Origin: Butyrivibrio sp.
GTDB lineage: Bacteria > Bacillota > Clostridia > Lachnospirales > Lachnospiraceae
DNA length: 50,474 nt
Direction: 5' to 3'
Assembly: GCF_017635265.1 (NCBI RefSeq)
Contig: NZ_JAGBLU010000150.1
Coordinates: 1 to 50,474 of the forward strand
Part shown: positions 2,692-43,934 of the stretch, one piece after another
Numbering within the stretch: position 1 is the first letter of the stretch
How the letters are laid out: every line of letters starts with the position of its first letter
Notes under the pieces: generated by a model
What the model saw: only the letters and a program-made list of their open reading frames with translations
Told to the model about the DNA's origin: nothing
Database searches by the model: none
Made by a program: the position numbers and the translations under genes

Positions 2692-5600
2692 TCAGATTAT
2701 AATTATATCAAAAAATCCCAAAGTTTTAAGACCGTCTATCAGCCTGAAAAGGTATTCGCTTTCTGTTACTTTCCAGTGAAATGAAAGTCTGTACAATGCT
2801 TTGACCGTAAATTTGTTATCGGCAGGTACTTCCTCATACTCCTCACTGTTTTCCGTATCATAATTGATAAGCGGCGATACATAAGAGTTGAGCCTGTCAT
2901 CAAGCAGGGTATTTTTTAACTTTTCCTCAAAGGTTTCATCCTCAACAAAATCAATGTTCATACCGCATTGTCTCATGATACTTATGACTTCGCCCATCTC
3001 AACCGAGTTGGAATTATATACATGGAAAATATTAAAATCATCCCCTGTACCCGAAAGCTTTACAATTGCAGAGGCGGTTTCATCTATAGGTGAGAACTCC
3101 ACTCTTTCATCAAGTCCTGAATACGGAAAGCATCCCAGTACGCTATAAGCTCTTAATGTATTTACAAAATTATTGGTTTTGAAATTCATCTGAAACTCGC
3201 CGTCTTTGTCTCTTCCCATGAGGTTTCCGACACGCATGATCTTGGCCTTTAGTCCATCATTTTCTATCCTGTCGATTATATATTTTTCAGCAAGATACTT
3301 TGAGTAGACATACATATTGGATTCCACATCCTGTCCCATTTCCAGGATATTTTCCCTAAGCACTGCACCCAGGATAGAGCTCTTTAACATATCCCCACCT
3401 ACGGACACAGTGGATACATGTATAAGCCTCATCCCTTTTTCAATACACAGCTCAGACAGATTCTCGACTCCATGAAGGTTCACCGACATAAGTGACTCGA
3501 TGTTTGCAAAATGCTTTACACTTGCTGCACAATTGATAACTGTACTGAAACATTCGCAAAATGCTGCATTTAAGCTGTCCTTGTCTGTTATATCCCCCGT
3601 GAGGATTGTGATTCTGCCGGGATACGCTTCGAATACATCCGTGTCAAAATAGTAGTACATCAGGTTTTGGAGACGTTTGCTGCAATCGGAGCCGCTTTCA
3701 CGCATCAGGCAGTATATCTTTGCATCAGTGTTATCAAGCAGATCCTTTAATATGTGACTTCCCAAAAAGCCGGAAGAGCCCGTCAGCAGAACATCACCGA
3801 TATCTCCCGCCTGTATTTCCCTGACATACTCAGGTACATTATGAGAGAGCACCTTCTTTTCACCAAAAAGTACTCCGGCGCCGTCACTTTCTTCTGTTCT
3901 TCTTTCTTCGCTGCCCTCTATCGCCTTTTCTTTACCCGACTTCTTTTCCATGATCTTTTTTTCAAGCTGCAGAATCGTGGGCGCGTCAAACAGATCCTGA
4001 TATACTAAAGGAATATCTCTCATTTTGGCAGCCATCATAACCTTGGCGGCAGTAAGCGACGTACCTCCAAGGGCAAAAAAGCTTTCATCTGTTCCCACAT
4101 CATTAAGATTAAGTACTCTTTTGAAAATATCCGACAATATTTCCTGAAGCTCTGTTTCAGGCGCCCGAACCTGCTTATCCCGCCCTGTTTCTGCAATAAC
4201 GGGAAGAGCTTTTTTATCAATCTTTCCGTTGGCGGTCAGTGGCATCTCATCGAGCTGAAGGATGGCCTGAGGTACCATATACTCTGTCAGATATGATGCA
4301 AGATGTTTTTTCAGTTTCTCAATGTCAATCTTTTCATCTGCGGTAAAATATGCTGCCAGATAATCCGTACTTCCCTTCACTAATATCACTATACTGGTCT
4401 GCACCAAGGGATATCTGTTGATCACATTTTCAATCTCCCCAAGCTCCACTCTAAGTCCACGAAGTTTAACCTGATTATCTATCCTGCCGTGATATTCCGT
4501 CTCTCCGTTTTCGAGTATCCTCGCCAGATCACCACTCCTGTATGCCTTCATTCCCAAAAGTTTTATGAAGTTCCGCTTTGTCAGATCTTCTCTGCCGATA
4601 TAGCCTCCTCCGACACCTTCCCCCATGATAACAAGCTCACCCATGGCACCCGGCGGCTGCAAGCGACCGTCCTTATCTACAGTTGCCACATGAACATTAC
4701 CGTTAGGAGTTCCTATATTGATATGATCTTTGTCTTTTACTATCTGCATAGTGCAGCAGATAGTGGTCTCTGTAGGACCATATCCGTTTATCACACAGAT
4801 ATCCGGATTGATTTCTTTCAACCTGTCGAAAAGAGACGGTGTAAAGGCCTCTCCACCTACCACTATACTCTTTAAGTTCCTTAAAGCCTTCTGTGAGACG
4901 TCTATATCTAACAGATTTGAAACAAAGCTGGGAGTACATACCATGAGATCAACACCCGTGAGAATCATGAGCCTGCTCAGCTTCTCAGGATTTAATATAT
5001 CCTCCCTTGTGGCAAGGACTATTGTTATCCCATCGGCTAAGGGAAGGATTTCCTCATGGATTGACATATCAAAGGTCAGGGCAGCAATGGCAAGGCTTAC
5101 ACTTCCGCGCTTTGTATAATAGACAGGAAACTGATTTTTGGGATTTTCAGCCGCAAAATTGACAAGGTTGTGATTGAACAGCATTACCCCTTTGGGCTTT
5201 CCTGTGGAGCCGGAAGTATATATGACATATGCAAGGTTTTCTCCGGACACTTGTATGTCCGGATTTTCCCTCTTTTCCCCGGAAACCGCATCCTGGGCAC
5301 AGATTATCTTTATTCCTTCAGAGCTTAGCTTATCGAATAAGTTCTTTTTTTCTTCTATAACCTGCTGCGAGGTAAGGATGATATTTGCCCCCGAATCCTC
5401 AAGGATAAAGCGTATTCTCTCTTCAGGATACTCAGGATCAATAGGCAAAAAGGCGCCTCCGCTCTTTAATACTCCCTGTCGCATTACATAGGCATAGCTG
5501 TCTCTATTAGCCAATACGGCAACAATATCATCTGGTACAATGCCCTCCTTTATGAGCCTGTGAGCAACGGTATTCGCTTCCTCATTCAGTTCACGATAGG

Positions 5601-41119: not shown

Positions 41120-42150
41120 CAACCAATCTGGAAACAAATTTAAAAAATATATACTCAAGACAGAGCAAAAGAAATATCGCCTGCGTAGTGTTCTTTGTTG
41201 TTATCATTGCCATCCTCGGCATTTTTATGATGACAATAGGAAATACCAATTATTCCTTAAGGGAAGTTATAAGAGTTTTGCTCAGTGATGAAACCAAAGG
41301 AGCAGCATACACCATAAAAAGTCTAAGGCTTCCAAAGCTCATTGTCGGAGGTCTTGCAGGTTTTTCTTTTGGGCTTGCAGGGTACACATTTCAAAATCTT
41401 TTAAGAAACCCTTTGGCATCTCCCGATATAATCGGCGTCACTGCAGGTTCCTCTGCTGCTGCAGTTTTCTGCATTTTGATACTTGGTATCAGCGGTGCAG
41501 TTGCATCGGTATTCTCGGTAGTTGCAGGTCTTTTGGTGACAGGACTTATTCTCCTTCTCTCAGGGAAAGGAAAAGCCTTCAGCAGCAGAATGATCCTTAT
41601 CGGAATAGGATTTCAGGCGGTTTTAAACGCCCTTATTTCATGGATGCTGTTGGTTGGTTCGGAATATGATGTAGGAACTGCCTTAAGGTGGCTGCGTGGA
41701 AGCCTAAATCCGGTACAAATGTCCGACGTTCCCGCCATTTTAATCATGACATTATTTTCCGGCGGAGCACTTTTATTTTGTAACAAAGAGCTGAGAATAA
41801 TGCAGCTTGGAGATGAGTATGCCACAACACTCGGAGCATCCATAAATCTCATAAGAATCTGCTGCCTTATTTGTGCTTTGCTGCTTTCATCAGTTGCAAC
41901 CGCAGCAACAGGTCCCATAGCTTCAGTAGCTTTTTTATCAGGCCCCATTGCAACAAGGTTAACCAAAAACGGATCGATTGCAATGTTAACCTCAGGTCTT
42001 GTGGGAACAATAATTGTTTACGCATCTGAGCTTATAGGAAAAAATCTGTTCGAAACCAGTTATCCTGTTGGAGTCATAACAGGACTTTTGGGAGCACCTT
42101 ATTTACTACTGCTGTTACTTAATATCAACAAAAAAGGAGAAAAGATCTGA
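41116..42150 (+). CDS. Ferric-siderophore ABC permease (FecCD family), subunit 2
   Basis: 344 residues with ~10 helices. Signatures: SLRLPKLIVGGLAGFSFGLAGYTFQNLLRNPLASPDIIGVTAGSS and ATGPIASVAFLSGPIATRL (coupling loop, here Ser-Gly in place of the usual Leu-Pro). I chose ATG 41116, which overlaps the previous stop (ATGA) with AAAGG 10 nt upstream; an ATG eight codons upstream (41092) also exists. Heterodimer with subunit 1. Confidence 0.92.
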   Translation: MTTNLETNLKNIYSRQSKRNIACVVFFVVIIAILGIFMMTIGNTNYSLREVIRVLLSDETKGAAYTIKSLRLPKLIVGGLAGFSFGLAGYTFQNLLRNPLASPDIIGVTAGSSAAAVFCILILGISGAVASVFSVVAGLLVTGLILLLSGKGKAFSSRMILIGIGFQAVLNALISWMLLVGSEYDVGTALRWLRGSLNPVQMSDVPAILIMTLFSGGALLFCNKELRIMQLGDEYATTLGASINLIRICCLICALLLSSVATAATGPIASVAFLSGPIATRLTKNGSIAMLTSGLVGTIIVYASELIGKNLFETSYPVGVITGLLGAPYLLLLLLNINKKGEKI

Positions 42151-42953
42151 TGAGTAAGATCGCACAGAGTCACACTTTTACTGCAAACGGAATAAACGCA
42201 GGCTATGATAACAGACTGATCATAGAAGACATGAACTTAAGTATCCCTGCCGGAAAATTCAGCGTCCTTATCGGTCCAAACGGATGCGGAAAGTCAACGC
42301 TTCTTAAGAGTTTCGCAAGACTCCTGGCGCCTTCAAAAGGAAATATCCTTCTTGACGGAAAGCCAATATGCGAGCTTCCTACCAGGCAGCTTGCCAAAAA
42401 GGTGGGACTCCTTCCTCAGTCTCCTATAGTTCCTGCAGGAATAACAGTTGCAGACCTGGTAGCAAGAGGAAGATTTCCCTATCAGAATCTTTTTGGACAG
42501 CTTTCAAAAACTGACTATGAAGCTATTTCCTACGCAATGTGTGCAATGGGTATCACAGATCTTGCAGATAAGCAGGTTGATTCACTATCCGGCGGACAAA
42601 GGCAGCGTGTATGGATAGCACTTGCCCTTGCTCAGGACACAGATATACTGCTCCTTGACGAGCCAACAACATACCTTGATATTGCATATCAGGTAGAGAT
42701 TCTCGACTGTCTCGCAAGGCTAAACAGGGAAAAGAAAGTAACAATCGTTGCTATTCTTCACGATATTAATCTCTCTATCAGATATGCCGATCACATATTT
42801 GCCATGAATAAAGGTAAACTTGTGGCAAACGGAAGTCCAAAAGATATCATCACTTCCGACCTCATGCATGAAATATACGGCATGGAAAGTTCAATTATCC
42901 TTGACCCGGAAACCGGAGATCCATATGTGATTCCCAGAAGTAAGGTAAGCTAA
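42150..42953 (+). CDS. Ferric-siderophore ABC transporter ATP-binding protein (FecE-like)
   Basis: 267 residues. Walker A GPNGCGKST (~residues 42-50), signature LSGGQRQRVWIALALAQ, Walker B ILLLDEPTTYLDI, H-loop ILHDI; the PTTYLDIAYQ motif is typical of iron-siderophore ATPases. Its ATG shares a base with the permease stop (TGATG). Completes a binding protein-permease-permease-ATPase operon. No clear terminator follows until the palindromic element. Confidence 0.95.
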   Translation: MSKIAQSHTFTANGINAGYDNRLIIEDMNLSIPAGKFSVLIGPNGCGKSTLLKSFARLLAPSKGNILLDGKPICELPTRQLAKKVGLLPQSPIVPAGITVADLVARGRFPYQNLFGQLSKTDYEAISYAMCAMGITDLADKQVDSLSGGQRQRVWIALALAQDTDILLLDEPTTYLDIAYQVEILDCLARLNREKKVTIVAILHDINLSIRYADHIFAMNKGKLVANGSPKDIITSDLMHEIYGMESSIILDPETGDPYVIPRSKVS

Positions 42954-43005
42954 TTACGTCTGTTCAAACCGCTTTGGTGCACCGGCTTTGTGTACTCATT
43001 AACTC

Positions 43006-43648
43006 AAACCTCCCACTTGCAGAACCGGGCAGGCTGCCATATATTCTTTTTTCTTGCCGTTTCGAGTTTTGGTGTTCATGGTATTAAATTTTCTATAGTT
43101 TAATCCTATGTCGCAAAACTCATATTCAAGGATTTCGCTCTCTCCGGCACAGTGCAGTTTTGGCTTTGCTGATTTCGCGAAAATGTCATTTTTCTTGTGC
43201 TCATAAGCAGCTTTGTCTGCGCATGCGGAAACGTTGTCTGAGCAGGACAAAAATAAAGATAAATTGGTCTTGCCCACTTCGTGGGCATTTTGGCAGAAGT
43301 AAAGAGGCTTTTTACCAAACTCATATGAGCTTGGAAGAAAGCCTCTTTTTCTGCCATAGGTGCAGTGCACCTAGACCTATTTATCTGTATTTTTGCCCTG
43401 CGAGTTTTAGTTGAAGCATGCGTAATAAAGAAAAGCTGCATGAGCACATAGAAAAGTTTCATTTTCGTGTCAGAAGCAAAACGAAACTGCACTGCGCCGG
43501 AGAGAGCAAAATCCTTGAATACTCAAACATGTTGCGACAAAACAGGATTAAACTATAGAAAATTTAAAACTCATGGACACCTCAAAACTCTCTTAGACAA
43601 GAAAAAAGAATATATGGCAGCCTGCCCGGTTCTGCAAGCGGGAAGTTT
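43006..43648. repeat. 640-bp imperfect palindrome (two inverted element copies)
   Basis: The left arm (43006-43324) aligns along its whole length with the reverse complement of the right arm (43325-43648), centred on CATATG at 43322-43327. Shared blocks include GAACCGGGCAGGCTGCCATA at the outer ends, TAAATTTTCTATAGTTTAAT, ATTCAAGGATTT-GCTCTCTCCGGC, ACAAAAATA-AGATAAAT and the inner AAGAGGCTTT. Where the left arm has TGCCCAC-TTC-GTGGGCA the right arm has a different but equally self-complementary AGGTGCA-C-TGCACCT, so the fold is kept while sequence changed. Frames up to 130 codons cross it in several directions; none has an RBS or family resemblance. No gene in 42954-43654. Confidence 0.85.
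43301..43345. terminator. Central stem of the palindrome, possible bidirectional terminator
   Basis: AAAGAGGCTT... pairs with ...AAGCCTCTTTTT around CATATG, with the inner arms CCAA/TTGG and CTCATATGAG. It could end plus-strand transcripts from the siderophore operon and minus-strand transcripts from the peptide gene, though the T tracts (4-5) are modest. Confidence 0.45.
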
Positions 43649-43654
43649 AAGTTA

Positions 43655-43843
43655 TTATTTAGATGCAACGCGTTTTCCACACTTTTTGCATTTGAGAACA
43701 ACTTTTTTCAACACCTTTACATTGGTTTTTTCAAATTCATGGTCTCCACCCTTGGGACAAGCATTACGATTCTTTGAACCACCAATTACATCCTCAAGGT
43801 ACTCATCTGTAATCTGCATTTTTTTATTAATATTTTCAGCCAT
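43655..43843 (-). CDS. 62-residue GG-leader peptide with Cys/His core
   Basis: No named family. From ATG 43843 (GGAGG 8 nt upstream): a leader-like part with ITDEYLEDVIGG, a double-glycine processing motif at residues 21-22 with the usual hydrophobic/acidic spacing, then a 40-residue basic core SKNRNACPKGGDHEFEK... ending KCKKCGKRVASK. Core residues Cys29, His35, Cys52 and Cys55 form a C-x5-H-x16-C-x2-C pattern resembling a small zinc ribbon. It looks either like a secreted precursor peptide (bacteriocin or signal, RiPP-like) or a small metal-binding protein with a chance GG. No C39 peptidase or modifying enzyme gene is nearby. The adjoining gene encodes a small membrane protein. Confidence 0.7.
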   Translation of the reverse strand: MAENINKKMQITDEYLEDVIGGSKNRNACPKGGDHEFEKTNVKVLKKVVLKCKKCGKRVASK

Positions 43844-43934
43844 TGTCTTAACCTCCATATAAGAAAACGTTAATGCTTAGCTTCTGAACTGTATCAGAAA
43901 AACTAACCATTTAATTGTTTTTGTTTTATGTACA

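What the first reader, a model, noticed from the sequence alone, without database searches (positions are those of the whole stretch)
43006..43648. Giant imperfect palindrome with structure-conserving divergence
Two ~320-bp arms are inverted copies of each other. Within them a local hairpin is kept though its sequence differs completely between arms (TGCCCAC/GTGGGCA versus AGGTGCA/TGCACCT), which points to selection for a fold rather than for a protein. It could be two copies of a structured RNA or MITE-like element placed head to head. The peptide fragment KKKEYMAACPVLQ readable from both arms is probably incidental.
Basis: seen in the sequence. Interest (0 to 1): 0.72.

Follow-up and report, generated by a model that had tools for sequence, protein, structure and literature searches.

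The report
Giant palindromic jumping element in Butyrivibrio
The giant palindrome is one copy of a family of gene-less mobile DNA elements, found almost only in the bacterium Butyrivibrio, whose two halves keep mirroring each other as they mutate, apparently because DNA copying transfers changes from one half to the other rather than because an RNA fold is selected.

Summary
Window 43000-43654 is a single 655-bp imperfect palindrome (arms 77% alike, E 4e-128) with three hairpins at its apex, not two elements placed head to head.

It belongs to a family with hits in 28 of 79 Butyrivibrio genomes (up to 17 each), usually 500-800 bp palindromes; one other Lachnospiraceae genus has smaller relatives. 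Some copies have intact ends: terminal repeat GTTACYATTCACAG, 8-bp target duplications, and two sites lacking the element in a sister species. Some IS66-family transposons of the genus carry the same ends, one with an exact 8-bp duplication. Best reading: a MITE-like element moved by IS66-type transposases. The window copy has no recognisable ends, so its own mobility is inferred.

The "structure-conserving divergence" is real but looks like DNA, not RNA, maintenance. In 22 close pairs, 154 base pairs changed on both sides to another Watson-Crick pair (one direction), while G-U (96) and A-C (86) states are equally frequent (both directions). Paired changes have the mutation spectrum of single ones and cluster, and the apex is inverted relative to the stem in 17 of 271 close pairs (101 direct, 153 undecided). 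That is the mark of template switching between arms. The inner core is strongly conserved; its function is unknown.

The parts
43000..43654 (+). whole palindromic element, oriented by the conserved right-arm motif
   Evidence: self-complementary over 655 bp, 77%; 87% identical copy in the same genome at G000:C110; right boundary coincides with the point where similarity to G067 and G009 resumes, query 1506 = window 43655
43000..43071 (+). outer stem, left arm (fast-evolving, pairs with 43583-43654)
   Evidence: the outer arm sequence differs between copies but matches inside each copy
43583..43654 (+). outer stem, right arm
43123..43160 (+). middle stem, left arm (pairs with 43484-43521)
   Evidence: 95% complementary
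43182..43253 (+). conserved core, left arm
   Evidence: alignment of 23 copies; low change rate in arm bins 5-8
43271..43287 (+). left side hairpin of the apex, TGCCCAC-TTC-GTGGGCA
43301..43348 (+). apical hairpin
   Evidence: (I4)
43357..43373 (+). right side hairpin of the apex, TAGGTGC-AGT-GCACCTA
43392..43467 (+). conserved core, right arm (match to model R1; this copy was among the 17 sequences that built R1)
   Evidence: R1 match E 1.5e-20; alignment A1
43484..43521 (+). middle stem, right arm
42150..42953 (+). flanking gene: iron-siderophore-type ABC transporter ATPase, ends 46 bp before the element
   Evidence: best NCBIfam match FecE/PRK11231 E 3e-92, below that model's own cut-off
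43655..43858 (-). flanking convergent small ORF (67 aa, double-glycine leader-like); its stop codon abuts the element
   Evidence: a similar ORF at the syntenic place in G067

Best explanation
This is a non-autonomous DNA transposon of the MITE kind, unusually long and palindromic over its whole body. Its terminal repeats (GTTACYATTCACAG in intact copies) are recognised by an IS66-family DDE transposase that acts in trans. It inserts with an 8-bp target duplication, mostly just behind gene ends and often between convergent genes. Once inserted, the two arms keep exchanging sequence during replication by template switching or recombination between inverted repeats. A mutation in one arm is copied to the other or erased, the apex is sometimes inverted, and deletions cut copies down to remnants of about 30-50 bp. 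So the arms stay complementary while their sequence drifts. Shown here: the copies, terminal repeats, duplications, two element-free sites, IS66 elements with the same ends, the paired changes without G-U preference, and the apex inversions. Inferred: that IS66 transposase moves the palindromes in trans, that template switching rather than RecA-type recombination does the copying, that the short remnants come from this family, and that the worn window copy arrived the same way.
For: Family: a motif pattern matched 40 stretches among 84,980 species, 39 labelled Butyrivibrio; 31 of the 40 hold a palindrome over 500 bp, 8 are cut within 120 bp of the match by the end of the stretch, 1 (L079) has none. 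Model R1 hits 28 of 79 genus genomes, up to 17 copies. Palindromes of at least 227 bp in 18 of the 20 genus loci given to (of 30 loci), and over 300 bp in 30 of 31 genus loci. Mobility: L027 is absent from the orthologous site in G065, whose target AACTTTCC is duplicated around the element with one base changed; L022 is absent from G003. TIR within 3 mismatches in 24 of 130 flanks versus about 1 in shuffles; 15 of 65 elements have it on both sides within 4 mismatches, and 6 of these 15 have a target duplication: exact 8 bp in L085, L078, L132, L135; 8 bp shifted by one base in L099; 7 of 8 in L027. IS66: L262 is a 3204-bp contig bounded by GTTACTATTCACAG at both ends with an IS66 transposase; L267 is an IS66 element with TIRs GTTACTATTCACAC/ATTACTATTCACAG and duplication CAAAAAAT (a second right-hand TIR at 4121 gives no duplication); L265 and L203/L205 carry the same ends; L203 passes the NCBIfam IS66 cut-off. 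Arm copying: 22 disjoint close pairs read in both directions gave 305 double WC (each change seen about twice; 154 in one direction), 96 GU, 86 AC, 196 other; double ts:tv 79:75 versus single 80:88; adjacent doubles 23 versus 9.3 +/- 2.7 in 200 permutations; apex inverted in 17 of 271 pairs, direct in 101, undecided in 153, while flanks are direct in 267 and undecided in 4. Remnants at L207, L208, L212.
Against: No IS66 gene over threshold in G003, G006 or G065, whose palindromes have the clearest ends, nor in G009, G039 or G067; the mover must be lost there or be another enzyme. Of 20 further IS66-bearing loci read, only 3 carry this TIR within one mismatch at the IS66 element; others end in related or different sequences, and the two read from the window's own genome (L275, L276) have none. 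Only 15 of 65 elements keep both TIRs within 4 mismatches, and the window copy has none (6 mismatches each side) and no clear duplication. The empty site of L022 is clean but its duplication is ambiguous (TTTT). The core is far more conserved than a passive MITE body would need. Part of the double-change signal and its clustering lies in the outer arm, where alignment is least sure. The 14-bp TIR is the only sequence I saw shared between IS66 and the palindromes. Mismatched pairs (378, both directions) outnumber paired changes.
Confidence: 0.72

Rival explanations
1. A large structured non-coding RNA: the long hairpin and three-hairpin apex are selected as RNA, and compensatory changes reflect that.
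For: Strongly conserved, strand-asymmetric core; 56 of 59 delimited tips have three hairpins with many different stems; the same core and apex in another genus, G322. In ten copies of the G003/G065/G067/G009/L034 kind GU pairs exceed AC, which taken alone would fit a sense-strand RNA.
Against: Over all, GU and AC are about equal: 224 vs 184 in the 23 elements, with AC in excess in several other subfamilies, and 96 vs 86 (p 0.50) in the paired comparison; GU only 10 of 650 pairs in the side hairpins; double changes not enriched in transitions; apex inverted in 17 of 271 pairs; no Rfam match above gathering; no promoter-like site in a crude scan. No transcript data were available.
Confidence: 0.14
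2. A domesticated bidirectional transcription terminator or insulator between convergent genes, kept for that effect.
For: 27 of 64 copies lie between convergent genes versus 2 of 38 other gene pairs in the same loci (p 3e-5) and 4 of 35 in the window (p 0.0015); median distance to adjacent 3' gene ends 26 bp, 58 of 85 within 50 bp (simple ORF caller).
Against: The position is equally expected if insertions into genes and promoters are purged; at the two sites compared the element is absent from the sister species; the tool's terminator scan found none in the window element, though its loop limit may exclude the apical hairpin; some neighbouring genes seem to have their own terminator.
Confidence: 0.1
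3. Two separate copies of a smaller MITE or RNA gene inserted head to head.
For: Arms are inverted copies of each other.
Against: Nearly every copy examined is the palindrome, with a shared apex and one pair of outer ends. Single arms standing alone were not searched for specifically; those met were cut by contig ends or were internal-deletion remnants.
Confidence: 0.02

Closest known systems
MITEs derived from IS66-family insertion sequences
   Same: IS66-type terminal repeats, 8-bp target duplication, no transposase gene, many intergenic copies; complete IS66 elements with the same ends in the genus. That IS66 elements make 8-bp duplications is recalled, and seen here for L267.
   Different: The whole body is a quasi-palindrome of 500-800 bp with a conserved core and three-hairpin apex; MITEs are usually shorter with inverted repeats only at their ends (recalled).
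REP/REPIN elements moved by RAYT (TnpA-REP) transposases
   Same: Palindromic, intergenic, multi-copy hairpin elements (recalled; PMC3116915 seen only in a search listing).
   Different: Some 700 bp rather than short; 8-bp target duplications and DDE-type terminal repeats.
Quasi-palindrome template switching (PMC8794818 and PMC8604942; outline and abstract of each read, with the opening of the introduction of the first)
   Same: Arm homogenisation, paired substitutions and spacer inversion between inverted repeats.
   Different: Those studies concern stems of RNA genes and short inverted repeats in yeast coding DNA; here a mobile family hundreds of bases long shows all three marks.

Membership tests
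IS66-derived MITE | terminal inverted repeats like those of an IS66 element | tested here: met
   GTTACYATTCACAG-like ends on both sides in 15 of 65 copies within 4 mismatches; same ends on IS66 elements L262, L265, L267 and one end of L203/L205. Not met for the window copy itself.
IS66-derived MITE | 8-bp target-site duplication | tested here: met
   6 of the 15 two-TIR copies (5 with all 8 bases, one of them shifted by a base; 1 with 7 of 8) plus remnant L212; IS66 L267 exact. Not found for the window copy.
IS66-derived MITE | no transposase gene inside | tested here: met
   Only overlapping ORFs of 84-131 aa on both strands, too short for a transposase; they were not searched against Pfam.
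IS66-derived MITE | IS66 transposase present in the same genome | tested here: inconclusive
   Present in G007, G064 and G000 (those read in G000 lack this TIR); absent over threshold in G003, G006, G065, G009, G039, G067.
IS66-derived MITE | mobilised in trans by an IS66 transposase | not testable with these tools
   needs an experiment
structured RNA family | covariation with G-U intermediates favoured on one strand | tested here: not met
   GU 96, AC 86, p 0.50; 224 vs 184, with opposite leanings in different subfamilies
structured RNA family | match to an Rfam family | tested here: not met
   no match over gathering score for the window copy or L010, L097, L119
structured RNA family | discrete transcript | not testable with these tools
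   no RNA-seq available
REPIN/RAYT | transposition without target duplication (recalled) | tested here: not met
   8-bp duplications seen
REPIN/RAYT | linked Y1 (TnpA-REP) transposase with matching ends | tested here: inconclusive
   Five Y1 matches in G000; only L035 was read and showed no matching ends by eye; other genomes not searched

The most novel reading that the evidence does not exclude
The strand-asymmetric core and three-hairpin apex are a working part: the element depends on its DNA hairpin (cruciform or single-stranded form) for its own spread or survival, so a mobile element has turned template switching into a way of repairing its own fold while its outer stem drifts freely.
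Probability: 0.28. Interest if true: 0.82.

Novelty: new variant of a known kind. Interest (0 to 1): 0.6.

Why it matters
Compensatory base changes are usually taken as proof of a selected RNA. This family, with dozens of copies and element-free sites in a sister species, is a natural test case where covariation seems to come from DNA copying between arms, and where the two causes can be told apart by G-U counts, mutation spectrum and apex inversions.

Tried and rejected
RNA-family reading: Rfam at E up to 1 and 0.5 gave only weak hits below gathering (microRNA, snoRNA, one thermometer), taken as chance. RAYT/REPIN link: PF01797 found five matches in the window's genome; only L035 was read and no matching ends were seen, so this was dropped. 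Composite transposon in G322: inverted pairs of motif hits about 1.5-3 kb apart looked like arms flanking cargo genes, but the eight pieces read at four loci are each a whole small element; BLASTN alone showed no full-length palindrome at the nine G322 loci, so their palindromic nature rests on folding. GGGACGG-type repeats at the ends of L010, L014, L016 and L032 were first taken as termini; copies of this repeat also lie elsewhere in the L052/L085 stretch, and L085 is inserted inside one. Weak hits (one or two each) in seven other Lachnospiraceae genomes had no palindrome over 60 bp (L112-L118), and the viral contig L080 and the unnamed MAG L079 had none around the match. A clean empty site for the window copy was sought: G067 is syntenic and lacks this element but holds a different giant palindrome; G009 and G008 have the two flanks on different contigs. 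Papers: searches listed no paper that, from its title and abstract, describes this family; bioRxiv and most subscription journals are outside that library.

Rows dropped: L015 and L023 (cut by contig ends) were left out of the 23-element alignment; 66 palindromes were carried into the comparison set (65), 59 had a delimited tip and 56 of those passed the tip-length filter. Pairs were chosen greedily as 22 disjoint pairs out of 167 close ones, excluding those over 98.5% identical, and were read in both directions, so its double changes count about twice. No tree was built, so the number of independent apex inversions (about five clusters by eye) is an estimate. Confidence was lowered from 0.74 to 0.72 when the paired-change count was recounted in one direction.

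Full report
What is in the window. Positions 43000-43654 form one imperfect palindrome. Its arms pair in long blocks, it aligns with its own reverse complement over 655 bp at 77% (E 4e-128), and it folds to -384.5 kcal/mol against -162.9 +/- 6.5 for 20 shuffles. The apex carries three hairpins: 43271-43287, 43301-43348 and 43357-43373. It lies between an iron-type ABC transporter ATPase gene (42150-42953) and a convergent 67-aa ORF whose stop codon abuts it.

A family. The window's genome has three copies. A pattern from the right-arm core matched 40 stretches in 84,980 species, 39 labelled Butyrivibrio. Of the 40, 31 hold a palindrome over 500 bp, 8 are cut by the end of the stretch close to the match, and L079, the unlabelled one, has none. 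The tool warns that records of the window's own or a very near genome may be left out there. A sequence-only model, R1, hits 28 of 79 genus genomes, with 17 copies in G064, 14 in G003 and G007 and 13 in G006 (stricter filters, so a lower bound). In a wider sample of the family it hits 10 of 299 genomes, two of them of this genus (G000, G003); of the other eight only G322, another genus, has many (15), and eight pieces at four of its loci are smaller versions with the same core and apex. Of the 20 genus loci from the model search given to, 18 hold a palindrome of at least 227 bp; L108 shows 147 bp and L098 only 66 bp near a contig end. Of 31 further genus loci, 30 hold one over 300 bp and L136 only 61 bp.

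It moves. L022 in G065 is missing from G003 at a terminator's T-run, where the duplication is ambiguous. Searching 65 copies for the terminal sequence GTTACCATTCACAG gave 24 of 130 flanks with at most 3 mismatches, against about 1 in shuffled flanks. Fifteen copies have it on both sides within 4 mismatches, and six of these have a target duplication: exact 8 bp in L085, L078, L132 and L135, 8 bp with a one-base shift in L099, 7 of 8 bases in L027. The other nine have none that I could see. An independent scan for exact 8-bp repeats at mirrored positions found 6 of 66 against 0.4 on average (at most 4) with shuffled partners, but one of the six, L094, is an internal palindromic word and L100 is doubtful. 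Probable remnants of 29-47 bp, consisting of little more than the two terminal repeats, lie at L207 (by its flanks the G065 place corresponding to L078 in G003), L208 and L212.

Who moves it. Seven exact copies of the terminal sequence in G007 mark palindromes (2), IS66 ends (2, one by subterminal sequence only) and three ends that share another subterminal sequence, one of them (C25) beside an IS66 fragment and an acetyltransferase-like ORF. L262 is a whole 3204-bp IS66 element bounded by GTTACTATTCACAG on both sides. L267 is another, with extra ORFs and the exact duplication CAAAAAAT, if its right end is the TIR at 4669; a second TIR at 4121 gives no duplication. L265 holds two more side by side. 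These are 3 of the 20 IS66 loci read; other IS66 subfamilies in the genus end in related sequences such as GTTACAGTTCAGAC or in different ones, and the two read from the window's genome lack the TIR. Against this link, no IS66 gene passes threshold in G003, G006 or G065, where the freshest palindromes lie. I read this as loss of the mover there; it remains the weakest link.

Why the arms match. I compared 22 disjoint pairs of close copies at base pairs inside Watson-Crick helices, in both directions: unchanged 5964, both sides changed to another Watson-Crick pair 305 (each change seen about twice; 154 in one direction), G-U 96, A-C 86, other mismatches 196. RNA selection should favour G-U over A-C on the sense strand; over all it does not (p 0.50). 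In the first 23 elements the totals were 224 G-U and 184 A-C, with G-U in excess in the copies of the G003/G065/G067/G009 kind and A-C in excess in several others, so the leaning is not consistent. Paired changes have the same transition/transversion mix as single ones (79:75 vs 80:88; p 0.58), whereas stepwise RNA compensation should favour transitions. They also cluster: adjacent paired changes 23 against 9.3 +/- 2.7, although uncertain alignment of the outer arm could add to this. In 271 close pairs the apex matches better inverted in 17, better direct in 101, and is undecided in 153, while the flanks are direct in 267 and undecided in 4. The best case is L150/L151 with tip identity 0.91 inverted against 0.73 direct and flanks 0.94 direct. 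Homogenised arms plus inverted spacers are the marks described for template switching between inverted repeats (PMC8604942 and PMC8794818, abstracts and outlines read).

What is left over. Most change lies in the outer third of the arm: bins 0-2 have 96 double and 117 broken of 1046 pairs, bins 5-8 have 16 and 39 of 1291. The inner core and its strand asymmetry are kept in the copies aligned. Either the core is under selection or something limits change there; I cannot say which. Side hairpins mostly have three-base loops (86 of 112). Copies favour gene ends: 27 of 64 lie between convergent genes against 2 of 38 other gene pairs in the same loci (p 3e-5) and 4 of 35 in the window (p 0.0015), with a simple ORF caller. 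This fits either purging of harmful insertions or a terminator-like benefit.

The window copy. It has no recognisable terminal repeat (6 mismatches on each side). At the syntenic place in G067 it is absent, and a different giant palindrome sits there instead. Its membership rests on the shared core and apex and on the 87% identical copy at G000:C110.

Noticed in passing
L235 1091-2570 (G067:C21); also G000:C64, C93, C100, C151, C28: A second family of giant palindromic elements: in L235 paired blocks 89% and 85% alike span about 1.2-1.5 kb, with only an 18-bp match to the 66 elements of this family. BLASTN matches in 17 of 79 genus genomes, some weak. In G067 it occupies the intergenic site that holds the window element.
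   Followed up: partly
L262, L267, L201, L202, L204: IS66-family elements or their ends in Butyrivibrio accompanied by extra genes: an ABC transporter ATPase by Pfam in L201, an acetyltransferase-like ORF and other small ORFs by eye.
   Followed up: partly
G322 loci L119-L127: About 15 model hits to smaller homologues in another Lachnospiraceae genus, some in inverted pairs around a methyltransferase-like or a thioredoxin/glutaredoxin-like gene (gene names by eye).
   Followed up: partly
L010, L014, L032 ends; L085 401-484 and 1803-1845: A short hairpin repeat with GGGACGG and TGAGCC...GGCTCA, at both ends of some palindromes and also elsewhere in the L085 stretch.
   Followed up: no
window 43655-43858 (-): Small 67-aa protein with a double-glycine leader-like motif (DEYLEDVIGG) and a CxxC motif, no NCBIfam match; a similar ORF in G067. 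Possibly a secreted peptide.
   Followed up: no
G003 contig ends: Assemblies seem to break at these palindromes: 9 of 14 model matches in G003 lie within about 300 bp of a contig end (lengths).
   Followed up: partly
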